DNA of 64,000 nucleotides from Mesodorylaimus sp. YZB2_4 (lineage: Eukaryota > Nematoda > Enoplea > Dorylaimida > Dorylaimidae). Positions within the stretch are counted from its first letter, which is position 1. Each line of letters starts with the position of its first letter. The position numbers were made by a program, and so were the translations under genes. Shown here one piece after another: positions 1,945 to 51,600 of the stretch. The stretch is taken from assembly GCA_030248295.1 (NCBI GenBank), contig JASANH010000142.1, positions 124,001-188,000 on the forward strand, written 5' to 3'. The notes beneath the pieces were generated by a model. The model did no database searches. It saw only the letters and a list, made by a program, of their open reading frames with translations, and was not told where the DNA came from.

Positions 1945-4900
1945 AAAGCATCAATAAAACGGATGGTTTTGAACTGACTATCACAGACAAGGATACGAAT
2001 CGTGAATATTGCTTTACTTTTAATTTGGATCAACCGCAGTGGGAAGACATCGACCGACACACTTCCGTGAGTTTGTGTTTATAACATCTGGTTTTCTACT
2101 TTGTAGTGTTTTATAATCGCTTTTATGTAACTGTTTAGATCCGGTTCCAGTTCTCTACGATTGACGTTTTCGATTTTGGTCATAATTACTACATCGAAGT
2201 TCATTCATTACCGAAACCATCTCCCGATCTAAATCCAAAGAGGCATAATTTTATTGGACGTGACGTAACCATGCCCCTTCATCCAGGTACGATAACGAGC
2301 GCGAAACGTGTAGGATTGCACTGTGTGGGCGTGTCTGTCTTATTGGCGCAATATGTCAGGGCCTCATCAGAGGAACCCCGCGAAGAAGGGGACCCGCACA
2401 TTTATCCCATGGAGGGGCCATCCAGACACCCATCATCAGAGAGACTGTGCTGCCTCCTGACTCGGTTACAAAGCCATCAGGCAGTAGACTGCGCTAAGAC
2501 ATGTGAGGTAGTACGCGGAATGTAAAAGGACCAAACAGTCTCTAAATCCTTCAAAAGCAAAAGTTTCAGGGGCCTTTCCCACGGAGTCGTCTTGCTATCC
2601 CCCCCCCCCCCTGACATGGTGGATCATCTTGATACCATCCCTGGGGCAGACAAACAAGCCGCGCCACGTTGATTCTGTGGTATTCGTACATGTCATGTCG
2701 AATTAAATCACCTCTTTTCATTTGCAGAGCAATTTTTATTGGAACAGTTGAATCGGACTGGCTATTTTGGTAATTTAAGATTTTTCATATTTTTCCCTTA
2801 AGTAGATACTGTTGTAATTGCGTGCATACAGAAAACACTTTTCGTGTGGCTGAGGGCGATATTCAGAGGCTATCACCAAGTAGCGCCGCATGCGGAGTTT
2901 CTACGCGCATGTCGTTGTCACGGGCGTGTTACTAAGTAACGCTATTGTATTTGACATATCAAGCAGTGTGAGACCCCGGTAGGCGGGACGAAGTAAAAGG
3001 AGAGTTAATGATTGGAGAAAGACGTGAATGCAGACTAACTAATTAGAGCAGCGAGCCTCGGAGCGAGTCGGTGAATGTATAAAGTTGAAGATAGAACGGG
3101 ATTGAAAATGGCCAGCACATCCTAGGCTAGAATGCAGAAAAAACGTCTTGACATTTACAGCTGTTAGTGCAAACATGAGAGAGCTGCCGGAGTACACAAG
3201 ATGTTTTGATTAGTCACGATTTAATAAGTTGCAAAATTGCAATTAAATGTGTTGACCTAGGCTTGTTTTAATTTTCAGAATCGTCAAATTCTCAACTCGA
3301 ATCTTTAACAGCCCATTGCGCGCCGTCGACTGATAAAAGTCGTGAACATGGCGAGGGTGCGCATCCGCAAGCAAGCAAGTGGGTGGCGGCGTTTCGATAC
3401 GTTTATATTCAACCCAAAGCTAAATTTATCTTCGTCGACTTCGTGGCCGCTCCTCCTCAATATTGCTTCGAAGAATATGAACTGCGATTGCTAAGGAATA
3501 TCCATGAAATTGTTGATCATAAAAGAATCCGCCGGGAGGACCTAAATATCGAAGTACATGGCAATGTGTCAGTGGCATTTGGAAATTATACATTTTATAA
3601 TGTCACACCGGGTGTTTATGAAATTGGGGTAAGTGATGAGTTAGGCTTTTTCCCTTAGAGACCTTTTCACAGTTGCCTGTTCCTAGGTGATACCAATCGA
3701 TCATTCAACCATCGATTCAAGATGCCTATGTCCGGCTTTTGGTCGAATGTGCACGTGCGCTCAAGCTATATGGCCCGAAGTGGTCATGCCAGGTTAGTAT
3801 TTACGTCTGCTCACGGAGGCTGCTTGAATATGAATAGAATAGAATAGAAATGAAATGAAATGAAAAGAGGTCTGCGGAACTTGCTGGCGTCATCGTGTCT
3901 CGATGGTGTCTGGCACTATTCGCAACAGTGGTATTAATTAGCATCCTTTATCACTTCCTTCCTAAAATATATTCTTAGCCAGATCCTGTTAAAGTCAGCA
4001 GGGGTGTGCTTCTGTAGGACTGTCTGGACTCGGGATGACAGTACCCACTGAAGTGGCTAGGACTGCTGCTTTTTTAGATCCACCCAAGGTCATTGATCAG
4101 CCATCGAATCCGTGCGATCTCTTGCCCCCAATGAAATTGCCCCACGACTGTCCTGTAAAATCCAACATTACGAGCCCCGTTTCGCCCTACCGCAATCAAG
4201 GAAACGTCAGCGTTGCTGGCACCGTCGTCACTTTGAGTTGCTTGCTAATTGGCGCTTTGGTATTAATCGTCGCCGGGGCTATTTTACTGCACTTGTATTA
4301 TAGGCGCCACAAGGCTAAAGGTAAGATACGGTACAGTAATTAGAGAATTCAAAATATAGTCGAATAAATGCGTTTTTCTGGTCTTCAGCTGCGGCTCGAA
4401 TTTATTTGCTGCCAATAAGTGGAACGACGGACTTTGATCTGAAGAGCACGACGGATAACGGGCATCCTGGCGTGGAGATGACGCCTATTTTGCACCAGGT
4501 CAAAGTGCTCATCATTTATTCAAGAGATTGTCCGGCGCACGAAGCGGCTGTTCAGGCATTGGGCGAATACTTAAATTCACGTTGCGTATGCGAGGTCGCA
4601 ATCGATAGTTTGTGCGTGACCGACATCGATGCTAACAAATTCGATTGGGCGTACAAATCGATAGCGGAGGCCGATCGGGTTTTATTGGTAAATTCGTTCG
4701 GGGCGTATATGCGGTATCAAGCAAAGTTGATGGTCGACAATGCTGGCAAAACCAATAGTCATATACAGGAAGAGTCGACAGTGGTCGAACGAGCTGATCC
4801 CAGTCCTTATGATGATCTGTTTCTATTGCAATTAGATTTGATCACTCACTGTCAACAACGAGATGCGAGTATTGGTCAAAAATTTATTTCCATCCGATTT

Positions 4901-5865
4901 TCTTATACGCCAGATCATTTCATCTTACCTCACGCCAATCCGCACATTCGCTACGAAATACCGCGGCATTTCCGATCATTGGTAGTTGATCTTCATCAAT
5001 TGAATTCGTTGGCGTCTGCTGTCGACGACGATAACTTCGTCGTCGCTTCCTCGTTGCCGCCAAGATTGCGCGATGTGAATAAACGAGACTACGAACGATG
5101 CGCAGAAGGACAACGATTAAAACTGTGCATCTCAGCCATGGAAAGGTAAGTCGTTCGGTTGACTGCGTTGTGTTCATAATCTGCCATGACTTTTGTGAGC
5201 AGAGATGCAGAAAAGCGATGATTATTCTCGAATGGAATGCTTGTTTGTGTTTCAGATATTTGGAGGAGTGTCCAGACTGGTTCGAAAGGCTTCATGTTCG
5301 ACGCCCGGTTCTTGCACCGACTTGGAATGTATCAAAGGCGTCTCCTGTAAAAACGCCAGTACGGACGAATGGTTGCGTCATTGCGCCATTGGCCATGGAG
5401 GAGCAGCTCGAATCTTACTTACCTCCGCACGTATCGTTTCCGTCGGCTCCAGCGAAACTGCGTTCGAATACGGACAGCGGTTACGGGGAACCAGAACCCG
5501 CACCGTCGACCAGCACCGTCCACGAATCGGCTCAGATAGGGTGTGCGCGTAATGACATTGTTTACGAGGACAGGGTTTTGTTTAAAGACGACGGGTTAGA
5601 GATTGGCCCCAGCGAATGTCTTTTGGGAAATGATGAAGACTATGTCAAATCGCCGGCCAATATGGACTCTTGTGATTCGGGTATTGCCACCGATTTCCTG
5701 CACAGTACCTCCAGCGCCAATGATGGCGTTTGTAACGATAGCGCTTATCAGTTTTATTTACCAAAAGCGGGTCCTCGACCACACGCATTGAATGGCGTCC
5801 GAAGTCCTAGTAAAGTGAAGAAAATTGTGGATGCTGCATCAGAAGCGCAAAGGCTCATTTGTTAA
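1945..5865 (+). CDS. SEFIR-domain transmembrane receptor (IL-17 receptor-like), 5' incomplete
   Basis: Eight exons join in phase: 1945-2066, 2139-2286, 2728-2769, 3279-3628, 3687-3792, 4018-4320, 4389-5145 and 5256-5865, giving 811 residues plus an unseen N-terminus. The ectodomain has scattered Cys and N-glycosylation sites and a Cys-rich segment (exon 3687) containing CLCPAFGRMCTC. One membrane helix in exon 4018-4320 is followed by a basic stop-transfer (HLYYRRHKAK). Exon 4389 opens the SEFIR domain with KVLIIYSRDCPAHEAAVQAL, and continues with a W..SIAEADRVLLV segment typical of SEFIR box regions. The last exon is a Ser/acid-rich cytoplasmic tail. SEFIR proteins recruit ACT1-type adaptors to signal from IL-17-like cytokines; nematodes have ILCR-1/ILCR-2. 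Which of these it matches cannot be decided. The assignment rests on SEFIR motifs and membrane topology. No adaptor or ligand gene is seen in the window. Confidence 0.8.
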
Positions 5866-14165: not shown

Positions 14166-14402
14166 ACGCAACACCGGTAGCTGGGATGAGGATGAGTTAG
14201 TGTGCAGGCGCCGAGGCTAGTCGGGCCTATCTCTCTCTCTTGTTTGTGTGTCAAGATACCTCTGAAACCAGTTATAAGGAAAACGTGGAAGAACCTTTTG
14301 GCCATTTCGATTTTTTTGACTTATTTATCAACTTTTTTTCACCAAGTAGCCTGCGAGGGCGAAAGGTGGCATTAGAAGAGATATTGGAAAAATTGATCTG
14401 CG

Positions 14403-15904
14403 ATGGACGCGCCAGAGATCATGATGGAGAACGAAGAATTATCTGAGAACGTACGGCGACGAAAATAGGAGAAGATAAGATTGCCTTCATTCCACTTGAA
14501 ATCAACAACCTGCTGAACAAGCAACCTGGAGAAATTGTCAAATCGATTGCTCTGGAAAACCCGAAAGAGAAACACCCCATCTGCGCTTTGCGACTAAAGA
14601 AAGTGATCAAACTGATTTTTGCCACGAAAGAAGCCAGAGATTGTGCTGTCAAAGAAAAGTTGTCGCTCTTCGGCCTTCGGGTCGAGCTCGATTATCCGAG
14701 GCCGTACGTCCCGATGCAACGGAAGACCATCTACTTATACGGTATTCCTTACGAAACAGATGGCGATGAGATCAAAAAGTGGTTAAAGGAGCAAGGCTTA
14801 AATACGGTATCAGAAGTTAGGAAAACATGCTGGAGGGACACAGAGATCGAAAACGGAGGAAGATCAATCGTCGTCCAGGCCGCACCAGAAAAAGAAATTC
14901 CTGGATTCGCCTTCTTCAGGCCATCCCCGCGATCGAAGCCAGTAACAGTGCAGATTTGGTATCCTGGTATCGATGTGTGGTGTTGGAAATGCAAAGGAAA
15001 AGGCCACATCTCGAGACAGTGTCCAGCGATGGATTATCAACCACCACCAGGATCCTATGCCGCGATGGCGAGTGGCACCGCCGGAGGCGGATTTCGAACA
15101 GTATCCAACATAAACGAGTCAGTCGCAGATCGTACCCAAGGAGCTGGAGGCGTCGACAACGAGAATTTCCCCCCTCTGACAGCATTAAATCCGACGCAGC
15201 CTCTGGTCAGGAGAAGGAAAGAGAAAGATCACAGAACCAGTGCAGAATCCGAGGTGCTTTCCAAAGCGGATATCCATCCTTTCTTCAAGGCTGAAAATCC
15301 TCTGTCAAACCACCACTCGTGCTCATTTATGATCGAGGGCCAGACCTATGCATCGACAGAGCAATATCTCTTCAAGGCGAAAGCTGTAGCCATGGGAGAC
15401 AAAGCGGCGGAGAAAAGAATTATGAAGGCGAAGTCAGCCAATGAAGCCAAACAAATCGGTGAGAAAATACAGTGGGACGAGGAAGCAAAGGGGCCTTGGA
15501 TGGCCTTCGCAAAAGAAAAACTATGGCTCGCTAATGAAAAGAAATACGAACAGAATCTTGGATTGAGGAAGCACCTGTTTGAAACGGCTCCCAAGCTCTT
15601 GGTCGAAGGGAATCCGAACGACGATCGGTGGGGCGTTGGAATCAAATGGGACGATCCTAAGATACAGGACCCGGCCAATTGGAGAGGAAAGAACGAATTT
15701 GGAAAATTGCTTACACAGCTGCGAGACGATTTGATGTCACGATCGGTGTACGCCGAGGAAGTAGACGAGGTGGCGAGGCAAAGAGAACAAGCGGATGAAA
15801 GAAGCAAACGACCTTTGAGCCCAGACAGCGAATCGAGCCAAGACGACGACCATCGATCCAATCGCAAGCAGAGGACCGAAGACCCAACGGACACAGACTT
15901 TTGA
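14403..15904 (+). CDS. LINE ORF1 protein: CCHC zinc knuckle plus NADAR domain (start frameshifted)
   Basis: The main frame is open from 14447 to the TGA at 15902 (about 485 codons), but has no ATG near its 5' end. An ATG at 14403 opens a short acidic frame (MDAPEIMMENEELSENV) that would join it by a one-base shift near 14455-14465, so a frameshift mutation or assembly error is likely. Numbering from 14588: an RNA-binding-like N-terminal region (residues 1-125), a CCHC knuckle (CWKCKGKGHISRQC, about 132-145), a low-complexity linker, then NADAR at about 226-383. NADAR landmarks are all present: NPLSN, YASTEQYLFKAKA, W..FAKEKLWLANEKKYEQN, LLVEGNPNDDRWGVG and GKNEFGKLL. An acidic, Arg-rich tail follows. 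Known NADAR proteins remove ADP-ribose from modified guanine in nucleic acid or act on related N-glycosides. Here it probably travels in the retrotransposon RNP; this role is inference. Confidence 0.8.
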
Positions 15905-16033
15905 ACACGACGGACGGACGATCGACATCAGCATTATTGCCGAAAGGTGAGCAAGGGCCAGAGTACCAAACTGACCTTGTGTTTCCCCCTGGGGTTTTTT
16001 TGTGGGTTAGCAGAATAACCTTTTTTACTGTGT

Positions 16034-19000
16034 TTGGTTTCCTTTTTTTCTAAAATAGGTGGCAATAGGGTATCCTTTGCGACTTTAAATGCAGCAGGAC
16101 TGAGAGATAAACCAACCAAGACTGTATCCTTTTTTGACTTTGTAAAATTATATTCGATTGTGTGCATTCAGGAAACCCACTTCAGAAATAAGAAAGAGGC
16201 ATCGTATTTTGACAATGTTTTTGAGGCCAGGTTTAAAGTTTTCCACAGCTTCTCAGACGAGTTTAGTGCAGGTGTGTGTTTGCTCATTAATCGATCTTCC
16301 CTGTTTTCGGACATTACCCGTTTGACGAGTGTTGATGGGCGTGCTATCCTTTTGACTGCCAAATATGAAAGTAGAATTTTTCTTGTGTGTGGTTTGTATG
16401 CTCCAGCTCAGGAAGCGCCGAGGAAGATGTTTTTTGAGAGTCTTCTTGAGAAGGCATTACAAAGGTTTAGGTACCATGATGCGGCTGTGTGTCTGGGGGA
16501 TTTTAACTTTGTAGAATCGAAGGAGCTCGACCGAAGTGAACTTACTTTATATACTGAAGCTGGACATAAAGAATTTCGAAAGTTCTCTTCGAAATTCAAG
16601 CTTCTCGATATTTTTCGGTATCATAATCCTAGTATCAAACTTTTTTCGCATCTGGCACATAGTACAAAAACTCAGGGCAGACTTGATAGAATTTATTGTA
16701 CACAAAACTTAGTTGAATCTTATGTAAACTATGACTTCATTGACACAGCTCTGTCTGATCACAAAATCTTTTATGTAAATTGTAACTTTGCGTTTGCACA
16801 GATTAAGAGGGGACCGTCTTACTGGAAGCTTGATGTTGATCTACTGCAAAGAGACGAAGTTTTGCGGGACCAGATCAGAGGCAAGCTGCAGTCTTTGCAG
16901 ACTAACATGGAAAGTGCGCACGACAAGGAGGTACTGTCCATGTGGGAGGATTTCAAGGATGAGATAGCGTGTTTGTGCAAAGCACATAAAAGGTACATTG
17001 AAAGGGAGAATAGAAGGCAACGAGCAGAGTTGGAAAAGGCACTGCAAAAATGTAAGACGTGGTTAGGAATGCACCCAACTAGCGAAATGCTGAAAGCGGA
17101 GTTTTCGGACATTCGCGAGCGACTAAGAACGTTTGATCGTGAGGAAATCAGGAGAAGATTGGGAAAAACACATTTTAGGGATTTAGCAACGGATCAATTT
17201 ACGTTGGTGACTGCTAAGTTAATGCAAAAAGCCTCAGCGGAGCAGAGGACAGTGTATGCGATTAATGATGAGAATGGGGTCACTCACTTCAACCAGTTGG
17301 ACGTGATAGGAGAGATAAGGAGGCAGTACGAGGGTCTGTTCACAAGTGTGGGCAGAGTGGACACTGCGGCAGCTGATATTTTCCTGACGCAACAGCCGCA
17401 CGGCACAGCAGGGGACGAGGACAGAGCAATTCTAGGAGAAGAAGTGAATGAGGACGAGGTTGAGAAAGCAATGAGGTCTTTCCAGAAGAGGAAAACACCA
17501 GGCAGTGACGGATTGCCCATTGAATTCTACGCCATGTTTCCGGCTGAACTGTCTAGTGTCCTATGTCAGGTATACGCATCCTCTTTTCGCTTAGGGAAAT
17601 TGCCGCCGAGCTGCTACTTTGGCATCATCTCTCAACTGTACAAAGGGGAAGGGGATAAGAAGGTCAGGTCCAACTGGAGGCCATTAACAATGCTGAATGT
17701 CGACTATAAAATATTAGCCAAAGTTCTAGTAATGAGACTGAGGAAGGTAATGCGCAAAATCGTTCATCCGGATCAAACCTGTGCTGTGCCAGGGAGGGAT
17801 ATTAGGGACGGGGTGCTCACCCTCTATAATGCTGCAGAATATGTGAAGGAGCAAGAGATGGACGCCCTAATTTTGTCGGTGGATCATATGTCAGCTTTTG
17901 ACATCATCGAATGGGAATATCTTTTCCGAGTGCTAGATTTTTTTGGACTGGGGCCTGTTTTCCAAAAATGGGTTGGTATAATCTACAGAATAGGATCAGT
18001 GAGTTCGTCAGTTCAGGTAAATGGATACGTGTCCTCGCCTTTCAGTCCGACCAGGGGAATCAGGCAGGGCTGTCCCCTGTCGGCTTTGCTCTACGTTTTG
18101 GTCTCTGAGACTGTAACCAATTTCATAAGGAGGGACAGAACAGTGAAAGGCATCGATGTGTTTGGGCAACAACTAAAACTGAACAACTATGCAGACGACA
18201 CAAATTTTTTGCTTGCTGACTCAGAGTCTGTAAAACGTGTGTTTGAGGTATACAATTTGTACAAGCGGGCTTCTGGGGCAACATTAAAAATAGCCAAAAC
18301 GAAGATTCTGTTGCTGGGAAAGATGAAAAAGGACTGCTTGGAGGCTGACCTGCAGGACCTAGTTGTGAGTCAAGTGAAAGTATATGGTTTCTTAATTAAA
18401 AACGAGGGAATGGAGATAACAGAAAATTGGGAAGCAGTGCGAAGACACATAGGCAAGCTGGGGGATAAGACTCCTCACACTGAGGTGTCCTATTTTGGTA
18501 GGGTATACGTGGCCAATACCTACTTCCTGTCCAAACTTTGGTATTTAGCATCAGTAATTGCACCAGAAGATGATTTGCAAAGGTTTGCTGAGACACAGAT
18601 GGATTCATATCTTAGGCATCCGGCTAAGCAGAATGTGATAAACAAGCTCATTTTGAAAAGGACCAAAGAGCAAGGAGGAGTGGGGTACCCTGACATTGGC
18701 TTTAAGGTGCTTGCATTTCGCTTGATGTTGTTGGTACGCAGGCATTTGGCTCAGGAGAAGGCTGTATGGCACTCTTTCTTCGATTACTTCTATGGTAAAG
18801 TAGAGAAGGCGACTTTGTCGCAGATTAGCTCTATACAGGCACCCCGTTTATACAAGGACGTTCGGAAAGCCGTACTGAGTGCTAAATTTAGTATTTTGAG
18901 TGATCATAGTGTAGGTCTGGATTCGAAGACTTATCCAATAAAGCATGTAAAAACCAAGCTTTTGTATAGACATATGCTTGAAAAAAAGGTGGGCAAGGCC

Positions 19001-19591
19001 AATAGGGCAATTGAGAAATATTGGAGGGAGAAGTTTAGGAAAGAATCGATTGACTTTGGTGCATATTGGAGACTAAATACAACAAAGCACGTCGATGGTC
19101 TAACACGAAGCATACATTTCTCCCTTCTGTACAAAGGATTGTATACAAGGAGCAGAGTGTCCAAGTTTACAGATGTTAGTCCAAATTGTAAGTTCTGCAC
19201 AGAGATGGCTGGCGAGGATAAATGCGAAGACGTTTATCATGTTTTTGTCGAGTGTCACAGGTTTCAGCTTTTTTGGAACAGAGTAAACGTACTCATTCAG
19301 GGTTTCGACCCGACCATCACTTTGAAAGAGGAAAGCAGGATTTTTGGAGTGACTGGCGGAAAATCCTCACATCTGAAGGTGATTGTAAACTTGATTTTAC
19401 AATCAGCGCAGAGATGCATCTGGTTTGCTAGAATGGATTATGAGGAAAAGAATTCAGACACTGACCTTTGGGTTTCACTTTTAAAGCGCCTTCGACTTTT
19501 GTTTAAAAGAGCTAGGTATACCTTGACACCGCATCTGTTTAACGAGATCTTTGTAAAGTCTTCTTTTTTGTTCAGAATTAGAGAGGGATAA
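16034..19591 (+). CDS. LINE ORF2: endonuclease / reverse transcriptase
   Basis: An uninterrupted frame of 1185 codons. The endonuclease runs from about residue 14 (VSFATLNAAGLRD) through IQETHF, GDFNFV and ALSDHKIFYV, so the catalytic Glu, Asp and Asp-His pairs are intact. RT motifs include TPGSDGLPIEFY (about 486), RQGCPLSALLYVL (about 676) and NNYADDTNFLL (about 716). A C-terminal CCHC/zf-RVT-like segment (CKFC…VYHVFVECHRF) starts near 1051. RT sequence style places it in the L1/Tx1 group. The frame has no ATG before the endonuclease core. ORF1 and ORF2 are in the same frame but separated by two stops (15902 and about 16016), so translation by reinitiation, a non-AUG codon or another mechanism is implied. 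No inactivating stop or frameshift was seen. Confidence 0.92.
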   Translation: MVSFFSKIGGNRVSFATLNAAGLRDKPTKTVSFFDFVKLYSIVCIQETHFRNKKEASYFDNVFEARFKVFHSFSDEFSAGVCLLINRSSLFSDITRLTSVDGRAILLTAKYESRIFLVCGLYAPAQEAPRKMFFESLLEKALQRFRYHDAAVCLGDFNFVESKELDRSELTLYTEAGHKEFRKFSSKFKLLDIFRYHNPSIKLFSHLAHSTKTQGRLDRIYCTQNLVESYVNYDFIDTALSDHKIFYVNCNFAFAQIKRGPSYWKLDVDLLQRDEVLRDQIRGKLQSLQTNMESAHDKEVLSMWEDFKDEIACLCKAHKRYIERENRRQRAELEKALQKCKTWLGMHPTSEMLKAEFSDIRERLRTFDREEIRRRLGKTHFRDLATDQFTLVTAKLMQKASAEQRTVYAINDENGVTHFNQLDVIGEIRRQYEGLFTSVGRVDTAAADIFLTQQPHGTAGDEDRAILGEEVNEDEVEKAMRSFQKRKTPGSDGLPIEFYAMFPAELSSVLCQVYASSFRLGKLPPSCYFGIISQLYKGEGDKKVRSNWRPLTMLNVDYKILAKVLVMRLRKVMRKIVHPDQTCAVPGRDIRDGVLTLYNAAEYVKEQEMDALILSVDHMSAFDIIEWEYLFRVLDFFGLGPVFQKWVGIIYRIGSVSSSVQVNGYVSSPFSPTRGIRQGCPLSALLYVLVSETVTNFIRRDRTVKGIDVFGQQLKLNNYADDTNFLLADSESVKRVFEVYNLYKRASGATLKIAKTKILLLGKMKKDCLEADLQDLVVSQVKVYGFLIKNEGMEITENWEAVRRHIGKLGDKTPHTEVSYFGRVYVANTYFLSKLWYLASVIAPEDDLQRFAETQMDSYLRHPAKQNVINKLILKRTKEQGGVGYPDIGFKVLAFRLMLLVRRHLAQEKAVWHSFFDYFYGKVEKATLSQISSIQAPRLYKDVRKAVLSAKFSILSDHSVGLDSKTYPIKHVKTKLLYRHMLEKKVGKANRAIEKYWREKFRKESIDFGAYWRLNTTKHVDGLTRSIHFSLLYKGLYTRSRVSKFTDVSPNCKFCTEMAGEDKCEDVYHVFVECHRFQLFWNRVNVLIQGFDPTITLKEESRIFGVTGGKSSHLKVIVNLILQSAQRCIWFARMDYEEKNSDTDLWVSLLKRLRLLFKRARYTLTPHLFNEIFVKSSFLFRIREG

Positions 19592-20052
19592 GAGGAAAAA
19601 AAAAAAAAAAAAAAAAAGATAAAAATCAAAATTAAAAAAAAAAAAAAAAATTTAATGGAAAAAAAAAAATTTATATATAATAAAAATATTAAAAAAAAAA
19701 GAAGAAAAATTGAATAAACAGTAAAAAAGGAAAAAAAAAAGAAAAAAAACGAAAAATATTATATTTAAAAAAATAAATAAATAAATAAAAAATAAATAAA
19801 ATATAAAAAAAAATTTAAAAACAAAATAATAAAAAAAAATGGAAAAAATGTGTGCGTGTGTTGCGCTACGTATAGTACCTGGGGAGGGGGACTACTCCCC
19901 GCTCACCAAGTAGGCGGTGGCTCGATGGAGAGAAAGAAGATTAAAAACGACAAGTGATTTATAGTGATATGATTAACCTGGTGGTTATGTTTGTATTGAT
20001 TGCCTCAATTCCGTTTATACAATAAAAATGCATAAGGAAAAAAAAAAAAAAT
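19590..20052 (+). other. LINE 3' UTR with A-rich tract and terminal poly(A)
   Basis: Immediately after the ORF2 stop comes about 260 bp consisting almost only of A with interspersed T, G and C. A short complex segment (19851-20020) follows, with a hairpin-capable GGGGAGGGGGACTACTCCCC-like block, then AATAAA and a second A run to about 20052. The second A run is taken as the element's true end. The long internal A-rich tract may come from an older poly(A) captured inside the element. Confidence 0.65.
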
Positions 20053-45614: not shown

Positions 45615-48600
45615 ATGCGTTTTACGAAATTATTGTTCGCTGCTGCAGAAACAGCATCGGGCTCAGCTGGGTTTCGTCCGAATGCTTCGAAACCTCCAAT
45701 TTCCCAAATAGGACCATTGCATTTACGACGTGATGCGCTGGCCGATCGAAGTCGTGTATTGGCGAGGAAATTGAAATCGGCGAATACTTCTATGGCACAG
45801 CTATTGCGAGTGGACGACGTGTGTCGGCATTTAATCGATTATCCTGAAACTAGAATGTTGATGGTGCAGGTGGGTGCCAGTGAGTGCTTTTTGATACAAA
45901 AATTACGGCACTTTTGCTGTTTGGTCCCCAACATGGGTTAGCTTAGGCTGGTATTAGACTTAGGCTTAGGCTTAGGCTGGCATATGACTTGGGCTTAGAC
46001 TCATACTAGGCTTAGGCTTAGGCTTAGGCTTAGTCTGGTATAATAATTAAGCTTGGGGTAGCTTGATGGGCGGTCATGGCGGTCGGTCGGGCCGGGCGCG
46101 GCTCTGTAAAAACACGTGTTTTTACCCCCTCAAACCGTAAAAAGTGGAAAATTGGTTTTTCTTACGTCAACAGTGTTCTTGGAAAGCGTGAAGATTTGAA
46201 AGCCGAAATTCTTTCCGGTAATTTTGACGTTTACGGAATTGTTGAATCGAAAATTGATAAATCGGTAACAGACACCGAAATTTCTATTCCGGGTTATTCG
46301 ATTTTTCGTCATGATCGAGTGAAAGGCGGCGGTGGAGTAGCGGTTTATTATAATTCACTTATTCCTTGTTATAAATTGAAATCGCCGTCAGATTTTGGGA
46401 TCGATTCCAAGGATTTGGAAACCTTGTCAATCTCGGTTGGAAGTGGGGATACGTCAGTTATTTTCATCTTCGTGTATATTCCCAAGACTTCTATTGATGC
46501 ACTCAATCGGCTGGAGGAGTATTTACACCGGGCCTTCATTCATCAACTGGATCGATTGGTGATTTGTGGCGATTTTAACATCGATTTGTTGTCTGCAACC
46601 ACCGCGAGGACTAATTTGCATAATTTCGTCGCTTCGATTGGTGGCATTCAAACCGTCACTCAGCCGACTCGTCTTGGGCAATCCCTCTTGGATTTAGTGA
46701 TTATTGGATATCCCGATCGACATATCGACACCCAAATCTGTCCCCCTATTGCGACGTCTGATGACAATTCGATTACGGTTTCCCTATCCGGATGTCCCAA
46801 ACATCGTCCTCCCGATAAAAGGAAAATTTGGCTTATCAAGAGGGCAGATTGGCAGAAAATTAATAACGAGATTACGGCGAAGAATCTTCTATATCAGCTA
46901 ACGAATGCTCCATCTACGGACGTGGCTGCGGAACTTTTTACGGCGGCAATTACTGAGGTAATCACCAACAATGTGCCTCAGAAAACGGTCAAGATGGCTC
47001 CTCGAAAATTATGGATGTCCTCCGATTTATTGTCCCTCGTTAGAGCCAAAAACGAGGCATACAAAAATTGGAAATCAACGGGTCATGACCAAGATCGATA
47101 TCGTTTCATCGGGCTCCAAAAGCGTTGTCGTAAAGAAATCCGGAAAGCCAAATCATCCTATATTGTCAGCAGTTTTACGAACTGTGCAACGAACAACGAA
47201 TTTTGGTCGAATTATCGCCGATTGGAAGATCAGGATAAATCGATACCGCCTCTGGAAGACAATTTTGGCCGATTATTCATTGGTTCCGGGGAGAAAGCGC
47301 AAGAATTAAACGACCGATTCTGTAAAAATTTCAGCCAAGGCGATTACGGGACATTCATTCCACCACCCACTGATCACGACGATTTCTCGGATTACTCGAT
47401 ATCGCCCGATTTTATTGAAAAAGAAATACGTCGATTGAAATCGAACTCTGCGCCTGGAGACGACGAAATTACGATTTCGATCCTCAAAAATATTGCCAAG
47501 TCGATTTCTGCCCCCTTTTCGGTTCTCATTAATCGAATAATGGAGTTGGGTCAGTTTCCAACGAATTGGAGAACGGCGAAGGTAATTCCGATTCCTAAGA
47601 CGAGTGGGAATCATTCGATCGATAATTTCCGCCCAATATCCTTATTGCCGATTCTCTCCAAAATCTGTGAACGGCATATTCAACATCTTCTTCGCCCCCA
47701 TCTTCAAATTTCTCCGAATCAATTCGGATTTGTAAAACGACGTGGAACGAATTCCGCCCTGATTGCAGTTTCGCAATATATTCACGATCAGTTGGACAAT
47801 TCAAAATTTGGAAACGTTGTGGGGATTTTCTTGGACGTGAAAAAAGCGTTTGATAGAGTCCCGCACGTCCCTCTTCTACGCCGCCTTCAATATCATCACG
47901 GAGTCCCACCAAAAATCTTGAATGTGATCAATTCTTATTTATCGAATCGATCACAATTCGTGGTCGTGGAGGGGGCGCGATCCAACAGGACGAATGTGGT
48001 ATCCGGCGTACCTCAGGGATCAATTCTTGGTCCCATTCTTTTCAATTCCTACATTGATCCGGTGCTAGAGGAATTCTCAAAGACTTTTCGAGGAGCCAAG
48101 TTATTTGCCTATGCCGATGATTTGATTCTTCTAATTCCGTTCAAAAATTTGATGGAAGCGGGGCGGATTTGTCAGCCAAAAATTGACTTTGTGGAAGAAT
48201 GGTTAACAACAATCGGGTTCGAATTGAATGCGGATAAAACTCAGGCGATGATCTTTCGCTACAATTACCGGAAATTGGAGCATTTACCGATTTTAGTCAT
48301 CCGCGACAAACCAATCGACTTCGTGGACCAAGTCAAATATCTTGGCTTGATTTTTACGGCGGATATGAAATTTACGGAACATATTTCGAACGTTTCCCGA
48401 CGGGCCAGATCGATGTTGGGGGCTTTACGACGCAAACTCGGCCGGAACGTCGACCCAGAAGTTATGGGGACCGTCTACACTGCGTGCATTCGGTCAGTAC
48501 TTGACTACGGATGTTGTATTTACGACCCAATACAACAAAAAGATATCGATGAATTGGAAAAATCGCAACTCCTCGCGGCCCGAATGTATTGCAACGATTG

Positions 48601-51600
48601 GTCCATAAAATCGTCCGATATTCCTACCAAATGCAACTGGACATCGTTGGCGGAGCGGAGAAGGTCTCTCAAACTCGTCCAATTCTACAAGTTTTATCAC
48701 GGCCAACACGACTGGGGAAATTCCAGCTTCTTGCACAAGACGGACAGTGGGCTTCGATACAGTCAGCGCCTCACTGAAGGTCATCATATCATCATTCCAA
48801 AATATCGAACTGTTTCTTCTACTCAGTCTTTTTATCATTCGGTTCTTAATTTATGAAATGCTTTGCCTGAAGACATTGCTTTTTCGTCGCTTTCAGCTTT
48901 TAAAATTGGGATTATGTGACATGTAGGTGTTTGCGCCTGGTAATTTATGTTCAGTATTTTATTGTATGTCTGTTCCAGTGGAGTGCACTTCGGTAGCTTT
49001 GGGAACAGTAAATCATGAGACATGAGCTTAGGCTGATATTAGCCTCCAGCCAGCCTTCGCTTGGACCCCAAACGGCAAAAGGCCAAAATTATTCAGCGGT
49101 TTTTTGATAGAACCAGCCGAAAGACTGATTGTACCTGATCAGTCAAAGCTAGGTTCAATTCTCAGGTGGTACCACATTGCTGCGGGATTGACCAAGTTTC
49201 CGATCCAATGGCGGGGCTAATCATTTAATTCGCCTACTTTCTTAGTGGATTATCCTAAATAATCGACAAACTTAAGTTAGAATGCACTAAAACCACCCCG
49301 ATTTATTGTAGGAAGGAGTCGTACCAACTTTGAAACTTTGGCAGCGAAAAACGGTCGATCAGGCGCTGAAAGGTCAAATCAATGAATGCTTGGCATTATT
49401 GGGACACGTACCCAGAGTGAAGGGACGTGGAATCAGGTTATTGGCTATCGATGGAGGTGGAACAAGGTATATTTCTTTTTTTAAAAATCAAATAATATAT
49501 GAAATGCCCTATTTTAGAGGACTTATGGCCTTGGAGATTCTAAGCGCAATCGAAGCGTTGTGCCCTGGCTATCGAATTCATCAATTGTTCGATTACGTAG
49601 TGGGCGTTAGTACAGGCGCTATCATAGAAGCATTGGTAGCTGGACTACAATTACCTATTCACGATTGCAAGCAAATCTATCGCGATATCGCTGCTCGTCT
49701 ATTCGATCAGAATCGAGTTCGTGGATCGTTAGGACTCATTTGGTCGCATTCTTATTACGATACGACAGCTTGGGTACGATTCTTGCGGCAAGCTATGGGA
49801 GAAAAACGAATGATGGATACGTCGCATACACCAGAGTGCCCAAGGGTGAGCGGTCACGATGCATGAGCCCGTCACTTCATGATGTGATTTTAGTTGGGAT
49901 TCTTGTCTTGCGTTGTCAATCGGCCGACAATCGACGCGTTTGTGCATCGCAATTATCACCATCCTGTCGATGTGGCATCGTGTTATCCAGGATCGTGCAA
50001 GTACAAGATTTGGGAAGCTCTACAAGCCAGTTCAGCTGCGCCTGGATATTTTGAAGAGTGTCGGTTGGATGATTGCGTTCATCAGGTACGTCTTTTGTGC
50101 CCTGGCAGGATTTTCCGTCTTGCTTGAAACCGTCTAACGGTAACATGTAATATGATCCTTCGTAATTAGTGAAAACCTCAAATGCAATCCATCATACATT
50201 TAAATAAAGCATAAACACGGGCTAAAACTGTCGGCGAGCGACAATTAAAAACGAATGGAAATTTGAGGTGGTTATGTACTGACGGTCTGATCTCTAGAAG
50301 TTTAAGTTGGCCATGCTGTGGACCAGTATTAAACCTACCAGAATGACAAAAAATGCAGGATTTCCTGCGATAAAACTGCCTATCCGACGGTGTTTTAATG
50401 TCCTATTTCTTTCTAACTCATCCTGGGATTATGGGCTTAGAGGTAGGTTTGGTTTGGTTTTTCACTTTTTACGCAACTGTCAAATCAAACAGGCTCTTTT
50501 GTAACATATTCTTTCTGAAGCTTGCGGGCGTAGAAATAGAATAGTTGCACTTATTGTAAATACCACGTCGTCATTCGTCACTGCCCATTACTAGCGCAAG
50601 CATACAGCTAGCATGCCAACCTTCGTTAATTTTTTTCGTTGTCGCTTGGCACCATCGACCGACCAGCCGATCCGAGCTGGTTCGGTTGCGGTGAACTGAT
50701 CCAAGCTGTGGGTTAGTCTGATCGGAACTTTGAATTCCCGCCAAAATATTTTTCTCTCTTTGGCGTTATATCGAGTATTTTTGCATGCAGGCAGCCACTT
50801 TAGAGTCCAGCATCGACCGACCCGACCCAACGTTGTATTGCGCCCACCCATTTGTTTTCTGGAATGATGCACATGCTTTCTTCGATGAAGAACCACCAGA
50901 CACCTGCAGTCAAGGAGGAAGGGGCTGACGGATTCCGGGCAAAAACGGACAGGGGAGGAGAACTTTAGGAAGTAGTTAACGTGGTCGTCCCTTGCCTCAT
51001 GCTGTCTGAGGCGACAGCGTAGAATTTCACAAATTTTTACTGTCCAACTGCACTTGCAATATCCCGTTTCGCTTCTATACTTGCCTTCTTAGAGTGGAAG
51101 GTGGCCGGTATGAAGACAGCTTTTTAAATGTTTTCGGGCTTGGCCCCCACCTACCCCAATTTCCTATGGGTTTGCCAGTTGCCAGCTAGCAATCATAATG
51201 AAGGGTGCGGCAGTGTGTGAGGCGATTAACTCTCATGGCGGGCTCCCTCTGATGGCCTCACTTGTAGCTGCTCCGCTGGAGCATCACCGCCGAGGGCATC
51301 CTGCGCCAGAATCGGCGTTTCCAGATGATAGAGGGCAAGAGCGGAGGGTCCGACTGGCAATTAGGACCAGTTTTCTCAATTGAGGGCACCGCTTCCACCT
51401 CCAATCGAATTTCTGGTGAATCACCCACAGCCAGTTCTCCGAGACCAGGTTTCCTAAACTGACGTCTTCAGCCAGAATAGAAATGAAGTGTTTCAGTTAG
51501 GGTCCCCCCCCAATCAACCTCTCACAAGCCAAATGATCCGCGCTCCTATGTGGACAGAAGGTGGGTGGGGTCGAAACTTGCAAAAAAACGTCGATGTCAT

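What the first reader, a model, noticed from the sequence alone, without database searches (positions are those of the whole stretch)
14403..15904. LINE ORF1 carrying an apparently intact NADAR domain
Seen: downstream of a CCHC knuckle, the ORF1 frame contains the full run of NADAR signature segments (NPLSN, STEQYLFKAKA, KYEQN, LLVEGNPNDDRWGVG, GKNEFGKLL) without stops. Known: NADAR enzymes reverse ADP-ribosylation of guanine in nucleic acids and occur in anti-phage and toxin-antitoxin contexts, fused or adjacent to ADP-ribosyltransferases. Inference: the retrotransposon RNP carries its own eraser, protecting its RNA or cDNA, or target DNA, from a host ADP-ribosylation defence. I cannot say whether such fusions have been reported before.
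Basis: partly seen in the sequence, partly recalled or inferred. Interest (0 to 1): 0.88.

Follow-up and report, generated by a model that had tools for sequence, protein, structure and literature searches.

The report
Jumping gene carrying a NADAR enzyme
A copy-and-paste jumping gene in what looks like a roundworm genome carries, in its RNA-binding protein, a well-preserved domain of the type that strips ADP-ribose marks off guanine, which could be a built-in shield for its own RNA or DNA; a similar combination has been noted before in oyster elements.

The parts
14198..20046 (+). Full-length LINE copy (5' end shared with four sister copies; 3' end followed by an A-run)
   Evidence: blastn to L019, L021, L022, L027 starts at the same base in all four; L019 and L027 reach window 20046-20048, L021 and L022 end earlier, in the A-rich tract; 5' flanks unrelated in 5 of 5 copies
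14198..14402 (+). 5' untranslated region
   Evidence: conserved among five copies, precedes the ORF1 ATG
14403..15904 (+). ORF1; in this copy the ATG 14403 frame is lost near 14.44 kb through a private one-base loss; open frame 14447-15901
14717..14968 (+). RRM-like fold (residues 44-127 of the 438-aa ORF)
14981..15022 (+). CCHC zinc knuckle (CWKCKGKGHISRQC)
   Evidence: PF00098 E 1e-3, just under cut-off; Cys/Cys/His/Cys invariant in 10 aligned ORF1s
15035..15280 (+). Disordered, fast-evolving linker
   Evidence: pLDDT below 50 at residues 161-225; mean identity 0.32 over 21 pairs of seven representatives
15290..15733 (+). NADAR domain; E258, K265, W304, E340, D345, W348 correspond to E43, K50, W89, E125, D130, W133 of P. 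nicotianae NADAR
16034..19591 (+). ORF2 (1185 aa): APE-type endonuclease, reverse transcriptase, C-terminal Cys/His cluster; L1-like
   Evidence: RVT_1 9.9e-28, Exo_endo_phos 3.5e-7; best solved relative LINE-1 ORF2p 8sxt, E 2e-66 over residues 11-889
16079..16762 (+). Endonuclease domain of ORF2
   Evidence: PF03372 residues 16-243
17657..18391 (+). Reverse transcriptase core of ORF2
   Evidence: PF00078 residues 542-786
19187..19255 (+). C-terminal CX2C...HX4C cluster of ORF2
   Evidence: read by eye from the translation and sequence
19592..20046 (+). A-rich tract and 3' untranslated region
   Evidence: sequence; tract length varies among copies

Best explanation
This is an L1/Tx1-type LINE, in a genome that looks nematode, whose ORF1 RNA-binding protein (RRM-like fold plus CCHC) has a C-terminal NADAR domain. 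Shown by sequence and model: the domain is complete; the LINE NADARs compared form one group; it occurs in at least seven divergent subfamilies (my grouping) and is held by purifying selection. Simplest reading of the small tree: one capture by an ancestor, probably from an animal-type NADAR gene. Inferred from the kept catalytic residues and from published biochemistry of other NADARs: it is an active guanosine ADP-ribosylhydrolase. Inferred further: held on the LINE RNA by the RRM and knuckle, it removes ADP-ribose from guanines of the element's own RNA, cDNA or target DNA, because such adducts would block reverse transcription or translation. Who puts the adducts on (host enzyme, environmental toxin or PARP side reaction) is unknown. 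Rough odds: anatomy 0.97; active hydrolase of ADP-ribose on guanine 0.65; acting mainly on the element's own nucleic acids 0.45.
For: Domain and fold. Presence: the 20 best NADAR matches (19 places, the window copy included) all lie in ORF1-ORF2 LINEs; 33 of 43 fetched places in all. Of ten places with the ORF1 N-part but no NADAR match I fetched five: two are cut by contig ends, two carry a deletion running into ORF2, one is decayed. Selection: NADAR dN/dS 0.135 (L023/L037), 0.18 (L016/L041), 0.10 (L010/L024), 0.08 (L010/L046, 59 codons), Fisher p 1.7e-6 to 2.3e-19. Residues: in 19 rows with a near-complete domain (several near-identical, so not independent) Glu258 19, Lys/Arg265 19, Glu340 17, Asp345 19, Trp348 18; in all 28 rows, counting residues present, 25/26, 25/26, 23/26, 25/26, 24/25. 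LINE group UFBoot 99, 13 LINE and 6 other sequences. Biochemistry: PMC11543638 passages; [quoted passage not shown]
Against: No activity was measured. Equivalents of R79 and R93 of the P. nicotianae pocket are not kept (E/K/G/D and A). Glu340 is Gly in L015, Asp in L041 and Thr in L050. The L016-type copies have Arg at the Lys50 position; in E. coli C7 NADAR that change kept in vitro activity but no longer rescued from DarT1. Four of the eight pairs tested show no significant constraint, dN/dS 0.74-1.21; L010 is used in four of the eight, so they are not independent. No DarT match and no Scabin-like match (no working control), in six-frame searches that ignore introns; PARP-type exons were found, but NADARs are reported inactive on phosphate-end ADP-ribose.
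Confidence: 0.5

Rival explanations
1. The NADAR works at the insertion site: it binds (or trims) ADP-ribose laid down by PARPs at the nick made by ORF2, helping the RNP dock or finish target-primed reverse transcription.
For: A review says PARP1 and PARP2 act at human L1 integration sites and that absence of either lowers retrotransposition by about 50% (PMC8535693, passages). PARP-type exons exist in this genome. A binder might not need the lost R79/R93 contacts in the same way.
Against: Tested NADARs do not cleave phosphate-end ADP-ribose. The catalytic Glu/Lys/Glu set is kept, more than a mere reader should need.
Confidence: 0.15
2. The NADAR acts on another substrate: a small-molecule N-glycoside (as E. 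coli YbiA does on riboflavin intermediates) or an RNA-processing event, as in the nematode SL1 trans-splicing protein SNA-3, which has three NADAR domains.
For: Passes the curated cut-off of TIGR02464, riboflavin-intermediate N-glycosidase. SNA-3 is an essential NADAR protein of nematode trans-splicing linked to CBC-ARS2 (PMC9303266, passages), and this host looks like a nematode.
Against: The LINE NADARs compared are closer to the intron-split host gene L029 than to the divergent host proteins L034 and L035; SNA-3 itself was not compared. TIGR02464 scores a family, not a proven substrate here. A metabolite role gives no reason to be joined to an RNA-binding protein.
Confidence: 0.18
3. The domain is a structural part of ORF1p (oligomer or RNP packaging) that has lost catalysis.
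For: R79 and R93 contacts are lost in the 19 rows examined, bar one gap.
Against: Glu258, Lys/Arg265, Glu340, Asp345 and Trp348 are nearly invariant among representatives that differ on average at 41% of NADAR positions.
Confidence: 0.12
4. Chance capture of a host gene fragment with no function for the element.
For: Transposons do pick up fragments: a Helitron-like element in this genome has a partial NADAR beside it. Four of eight tested pairs show no significant constraint.
Against: I saw no intact ORF1 of this family without the domain; it occurs in at least seven subfamilies with largely saturated synonymous divergence, four tested pairs show strong constraint, and four metagenomic relatives have it.
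Confidence: 0.02

Closest known systems
NADAR-bearing Tx1 LINEs of Crassostrea gigas (Repbase families noted in PMC12477816)
   Same: YbiA-family NADAR in the ORF1 protein of Tx1 LINEs (passages read)
   Different: Oyster elements, described there as divergent hits; their sequences are not held here, so relatedness to this family was not tested
NADAR-bearing Gypsy retrotransposons of Ectocarpus (PMC12477816)
   Same: Retrotransposon that has taken up a YbiA-family NADAR
   Different: LTR element; [quoted passage not shown] the paper reports almost exclusively bacterial blastp hits outside Ectocarpus
Human LINE-1 (ORF2p 8sxt)
   Same: ORF2 endonuclease-RT alignable over residues 11-889, E 2e-66; RNA-binding ORF1 (recalled)
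   Different: Human ORF1p is recalled to be a coiled-coil trimer with one RRM and a CTD, with neither CCHC nor NADAR
DarT1-associated NADAR antitoxins and E. coli YbiA
   Same: Fold of YbiA and of P. nicotianae NADAR and the catalytic Glu/Lys pattern; Glu at the YbiA-type position (E340)
   Different: Bacterial, stand-alone or in a toxin operon; the R79/R93 contacts are not kept in the LINE domains
Nematode SNA-3 and host NADAR genes
   Same: NADAR in nematode proteins, SNA-3 being RNA-linked
   Different: Host genes with two or three NADARs; L029 looks intron-split and shows no LINE ORF2 match

Membership tests
NADAR superfamily (PF08719) | Score above the curated Pfam cut-off over the whole profile | tested here: met
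   101.3 bits against 35.1, profile 9-162/163
NADAR superfamily (PF08719) | YbiA fold | tested here: met
NADAR superfamily (PF08719) | Catalytic residues equivalent to E43, K50, E125 | tested here: met
   E258 19/19, K or R265 19/19 (15 K, 4 R), E340 17/19 rows. Arg at the Lys position is reported to keep in vitro activity but not DarT1 rescue
NADAR superfamily (PF08719) | All eight ADP-ribose contacts named for P. nicotianae NADAR | tested here: inconclusive
   Six of eight kept; R79 and R93 equivalents are not; whether they are needed in this subfamily is unknown
NADAR superfamily (PF08719) | Hydrolysis of ADP-ribosyl-guanine | not testable with these tools
   needs protein
L1/Tx1-group LINE | ORF2 with N-terminal APE endonuclease and L1-like RT | tested here: met
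L1/Tx1-group LINE | ORF1 with RRM and CCHC | tested here: inconclusive
Tx1 clade proper | RT phylogeny with reference Tx1 elements | not testable with these tools
   no Repbase library held
NADAR-LINE as reported in oyster | NADAR in ORF1 of an L1/Tx1-type LINE | tested here: met

The most novel reading that the evidence does not exclude
An animal retrotransposon carries its own eraser because its genome (or a toxin its host meets) attacks retrotransposon nucleic acid by ADP-ribosylating guanine: a nucleic-acid ADP-ribosylation defence, known in bacteria against phages, would also operate against transposons in animals, with the LINE NADAR as the counter-defence.
Probability: 0.22. Interest if true: 0.88.

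Novelty: new member of a known kind. Interest (0 to 1): 0.55.

Why it matters
The physiological role of eukaryotic NADARs is unclear (PMC11125620, passages). A mobile element that has kept one through wide divergence, joined to its RNA-binding protein and under purifying selection, suggests that reversing some ADP-ribose mark helps retrotransposition. Retrotransposition assays with and without the domain could therefore reveal whether nucleic-acid ADP-ribosylation restrains transposons in animals. It also shows that the oyster case is not a one-off.

Tried and rejected
Chance motif: rejected. Passenger fragment: held very unlikely. Bacterial or viral origin: profile scans of genome contigs and viral contigs with the LINE NADAR alignment gave 56 and 113 pattern hits, none confirmed as a relative; these patterns reach near relatives only, so an old bacterial source is not excluded. 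A protein search with the NADAR piece alone found nothing at 1e-5 among only 10 candidates. A profile search with ten ORF1s returned the same four proteins as the single search. Target-site duplications: of five copies three gave an 8-base repeat (that of L019 lies inside the element's own 3' end) and two gave none; by my estimate 8-mers turn up by chance often enough that I make no claim. SL1 leader RNA: the Rfam search had no working control; the exact 22-mer gave 0 matches. Separate trees of the ORF1 N-part and of NADAR agree on L016+(L023,L037) but are otherwise weakly supported. Placing the host by COX1 failed because the machine did not answer. Literature: one search listed 20 of 104 papers, one search listed 15 of 11,695 (two of three terms), all 15, all 4, both of 2, so the first two lists are partial. 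PMC9503650 has no occurrence of 'transpos' in its main text. The first description of the NADAR superfamily (recalled, 2012) was not looked for.

Full report
WHAT IS THERE. The open frame 14588-15904 (438 aa from its first TTG) scores PF08719 NADAR at E 9e-29 over residues 235-382 and zf-CCHC at E 1e-3, just under cut-off, over 132-146. TIGR02464 gives 1.5e-30, above its cut-off, and the defence library PADLOC gives the candidate family PDC-M42C at 9.1e-25. Downstream, ORF2 16034-19591 (1185 aa) has an APE endonuclease (3.5e-7) and a reverse transcriptase (9.9e-28) and aligns with LINE-1 ORF2p (8sxt) over residues 11-889, E 2e-66. Four sister copies in the same genome begin at the same base (window 14198) and share 95.5-98.6% DNA identity over the aligned stretch, with unrelated 5' flanks. 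So this is a full-length LINE, 14198 to about 20046.

STATE OF THIS COPY. The ATG that starts ORF1 in sisters L019 and L021 corresponds to 14403, but here a private one-base loss near 14.44 kb shifts the frame; the open frame continues from 14447. The NADAR part is unaffected. Other copies with both frames open exist in the genome.

HOW WIDESPREAD. The genome (145 Mb, 1067 contigs) has 75 NADAR matches. I fetched DNA for 43 distinct places. The first 19 (the 20 best matches, the window copy among them) all carry ORF1- and ORF2-homologous sequence. Of the 24 fetched later, 14 are LINE copies (L030, L036-L039, L041-L043, L045-L050; L048 by the end of the domain and the tail only) and 10 are not or not visibly: host-like L029, L031, L034, L035; L032 and L033 with a partial NADAR of the Helitron-linked type (the link was checked for L032's contig only); unassigned L040, L044, L051, L052. 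The other matches were not fetched. Starting instead from the ORF1 N-part (43 matches), ten places had no NADAR match. I fetched five: two are cut by contig ends (L054, L055), two have deletions running into ORF2 (L053, L057), one is decayed (L056); five weak ones (two on C199, one each on C208, C91, C40) were not fetched. I saw no intact ORF1 of this family without NADAR. In the 5.8-billion-protein set four metagenomic ORF1 relatives (35-44% identity) have the CCHC-linker-NADAR order (P0002 lacks the end of the domain, P0003 the N-part).

CONSERVATION. Among seven representatives (my grouping into subfamilies) mean pairwise identity is 0.59 in NADAR (21 pairs), 0.48 in the RRM-CCHC part (12 pairs), 0.32 in linker and in tail (21 pairs each). 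Over 19 rows with a near-complete domain: Glu258 (E43) 19, Lys or Arg265 (K50) 19, Trp304 (W89) 17, Glu340 (E125) 17, Asp345 (D130) 19, Trp348 (W133) 18. Several rows are near-identical copies. Nine rows of the 28 were left out there (L026, L027, L038, L042 in two pieces, L045, L046, L047, L050: partial, frame-shifted or decayed); over all 28, counting residues present, the figures for 258, 265, 340, 345 and 348 are 25/26, 25/26, 23/26, 25/26 and 24/25. The equivalents of R79 (now E, K, G or D) and R93 (now A) are not kept. The correspondence uses residue roles from PMC11543638 passages and the 8bau alignment, allowing for a two-residue offset in chain numbering that I inferred from the motif spacing.

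SELECTION. I put eight pairs to a test. NADAR dN/dS: L023/L037 0.135, L016/L041 0.18, L010/L024 0.10, L010/L046 0.08 (59 codons): Fisher p 3.8e-11, 1.7e-6, 2.3e-19, 6.3e-8. L011/L038 0.95, L010/L050 0.74, L013/L012 1.07 and L010/L009p 1.21 are not significant. The pairs share sequences (L010 in four). In L023/L037 the N-part has 0.13 and the linker 0.71. Where synonymous sites are saturated, pN in NADAR and ORF2 is alike: 0.21 and 0.23 (window/L016), 0.25 and 0.25 (L016/L010), 0.24 and 0.24 (L023/L016), against 0.30-0.40 in the ORF1 N-part; window/L023 departs (0.22 and 0.10), its ORF2 being mosaic. In these three pairs the domain is therefore constrained about as much as ORF2.

ORIGIN. In a small tree 13 LINE NADARs, three of them metagenomic, split with UFBoot 99 from the six others: host L029 domains 1 and 2, L034, L035, 8bau and YbiA. 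The window NADAR is 36% identical to host L029 domain 1, 32% to 8bau, 28% to YbiA. A single capture from an animal-type NADAR gene is the simplest reading; with so few references it is not proven.

HOST. 133 matches to the cuticle collagen N-domain PF01484 (that the family is nematode-typical is recalled, and no control genome rang) point to a nematode; the SL1 22-mer gave 0 matches.

MECHANISM. NADARs reverse guanine ADP-ribosylation (PMC11543638 passages; [quoted passage not shown] A NADAR joined to an RNA-binding ORF1p would meet the element's RNA and cDNA first. That is the most economical function, but substrate, attacker and activity are inferred. Six-frame searches of this genome, which ignore introns, show PARP-type exons, no DarT match (control rang in 1 of 14) and no Scabin-like match (no working control).

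PRIOR ART. PMC12477816 (passages read) reports YbiA-family NADAR domains in Ectocarpus Gypsy elements and in ORF1 of several Tx1 LINE families of Crassostrea gigas, and suggests RNA processing. I saw no other paper on NADAR in LINEs in the listings (20 of 104 listed; 15 of 15; 4 of 4; 15 of 11,695; 2 of 2); the library holds open-licence PMC papers only. Hence a new member of a known, barely described kind, here with evidence on distribution, selection and pocket residues; no nematode case turned up in those listings.

Noticed in passing
G000:C289:2-8531 (L058, L060); similar partial NADARs at C929, C765, C491, C936, C134, C444: A Helitron-like element (2248-aa open frame running off the contig start, HIHYH motif by eye, Pif1 helicase 2B domain, C-terminal UCH peptidase) is followed about 1.5 kb downstream by a partial NADAR (profile 2-101 of 163, lacking the last third with the catalytic Glu); the segment joining them recurs at 81-82% identity in the two other copies compared, C936 and C765. 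Looks like a captured gene fragment.
   Followed up: partly
window 16034-19591 against L023:2740-6285(-): ORF2 mosaic: synonymous differences fall from 0.55-0.83 to 0.22-0.30 per 60-codon block after codon 840, while ORF1 is saturated, suggesting template switching between LINE lineages.
   Followed up: partly
L029 (G000:C18:335400-338400): Apparently intron-split host gene with two NADAR domains, the closest non-LINE relative among those compared.
   Followed up: partly
L031 (G000:C230:15800-18900), L034, L035: Divergent NADAR proteins; L031, with NADAR in two large frames, may be the SNA-3 gene of this genome, not compared with SNA-3 itself.
   Followed up: no
window 46076-48856 +: A second, different LINE ORF (926 aa; RVT_1 2.5e-37, Exo_endo_phos 2.3e-6).
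   Followed up: no
window 19592-19850: Long A-rich tract between ORF2 and the 3' untranslated region, of varying length among copies; in two of four sisters (L021, L022) the match to the element ends there.
   Followed up: no
window 4406-5149 +; 49330-49866 +: Host frames with a SEFIR domain (3.1e-15) and a patatin-like phospholipase domain (2.3e-14).
   Followed up: no
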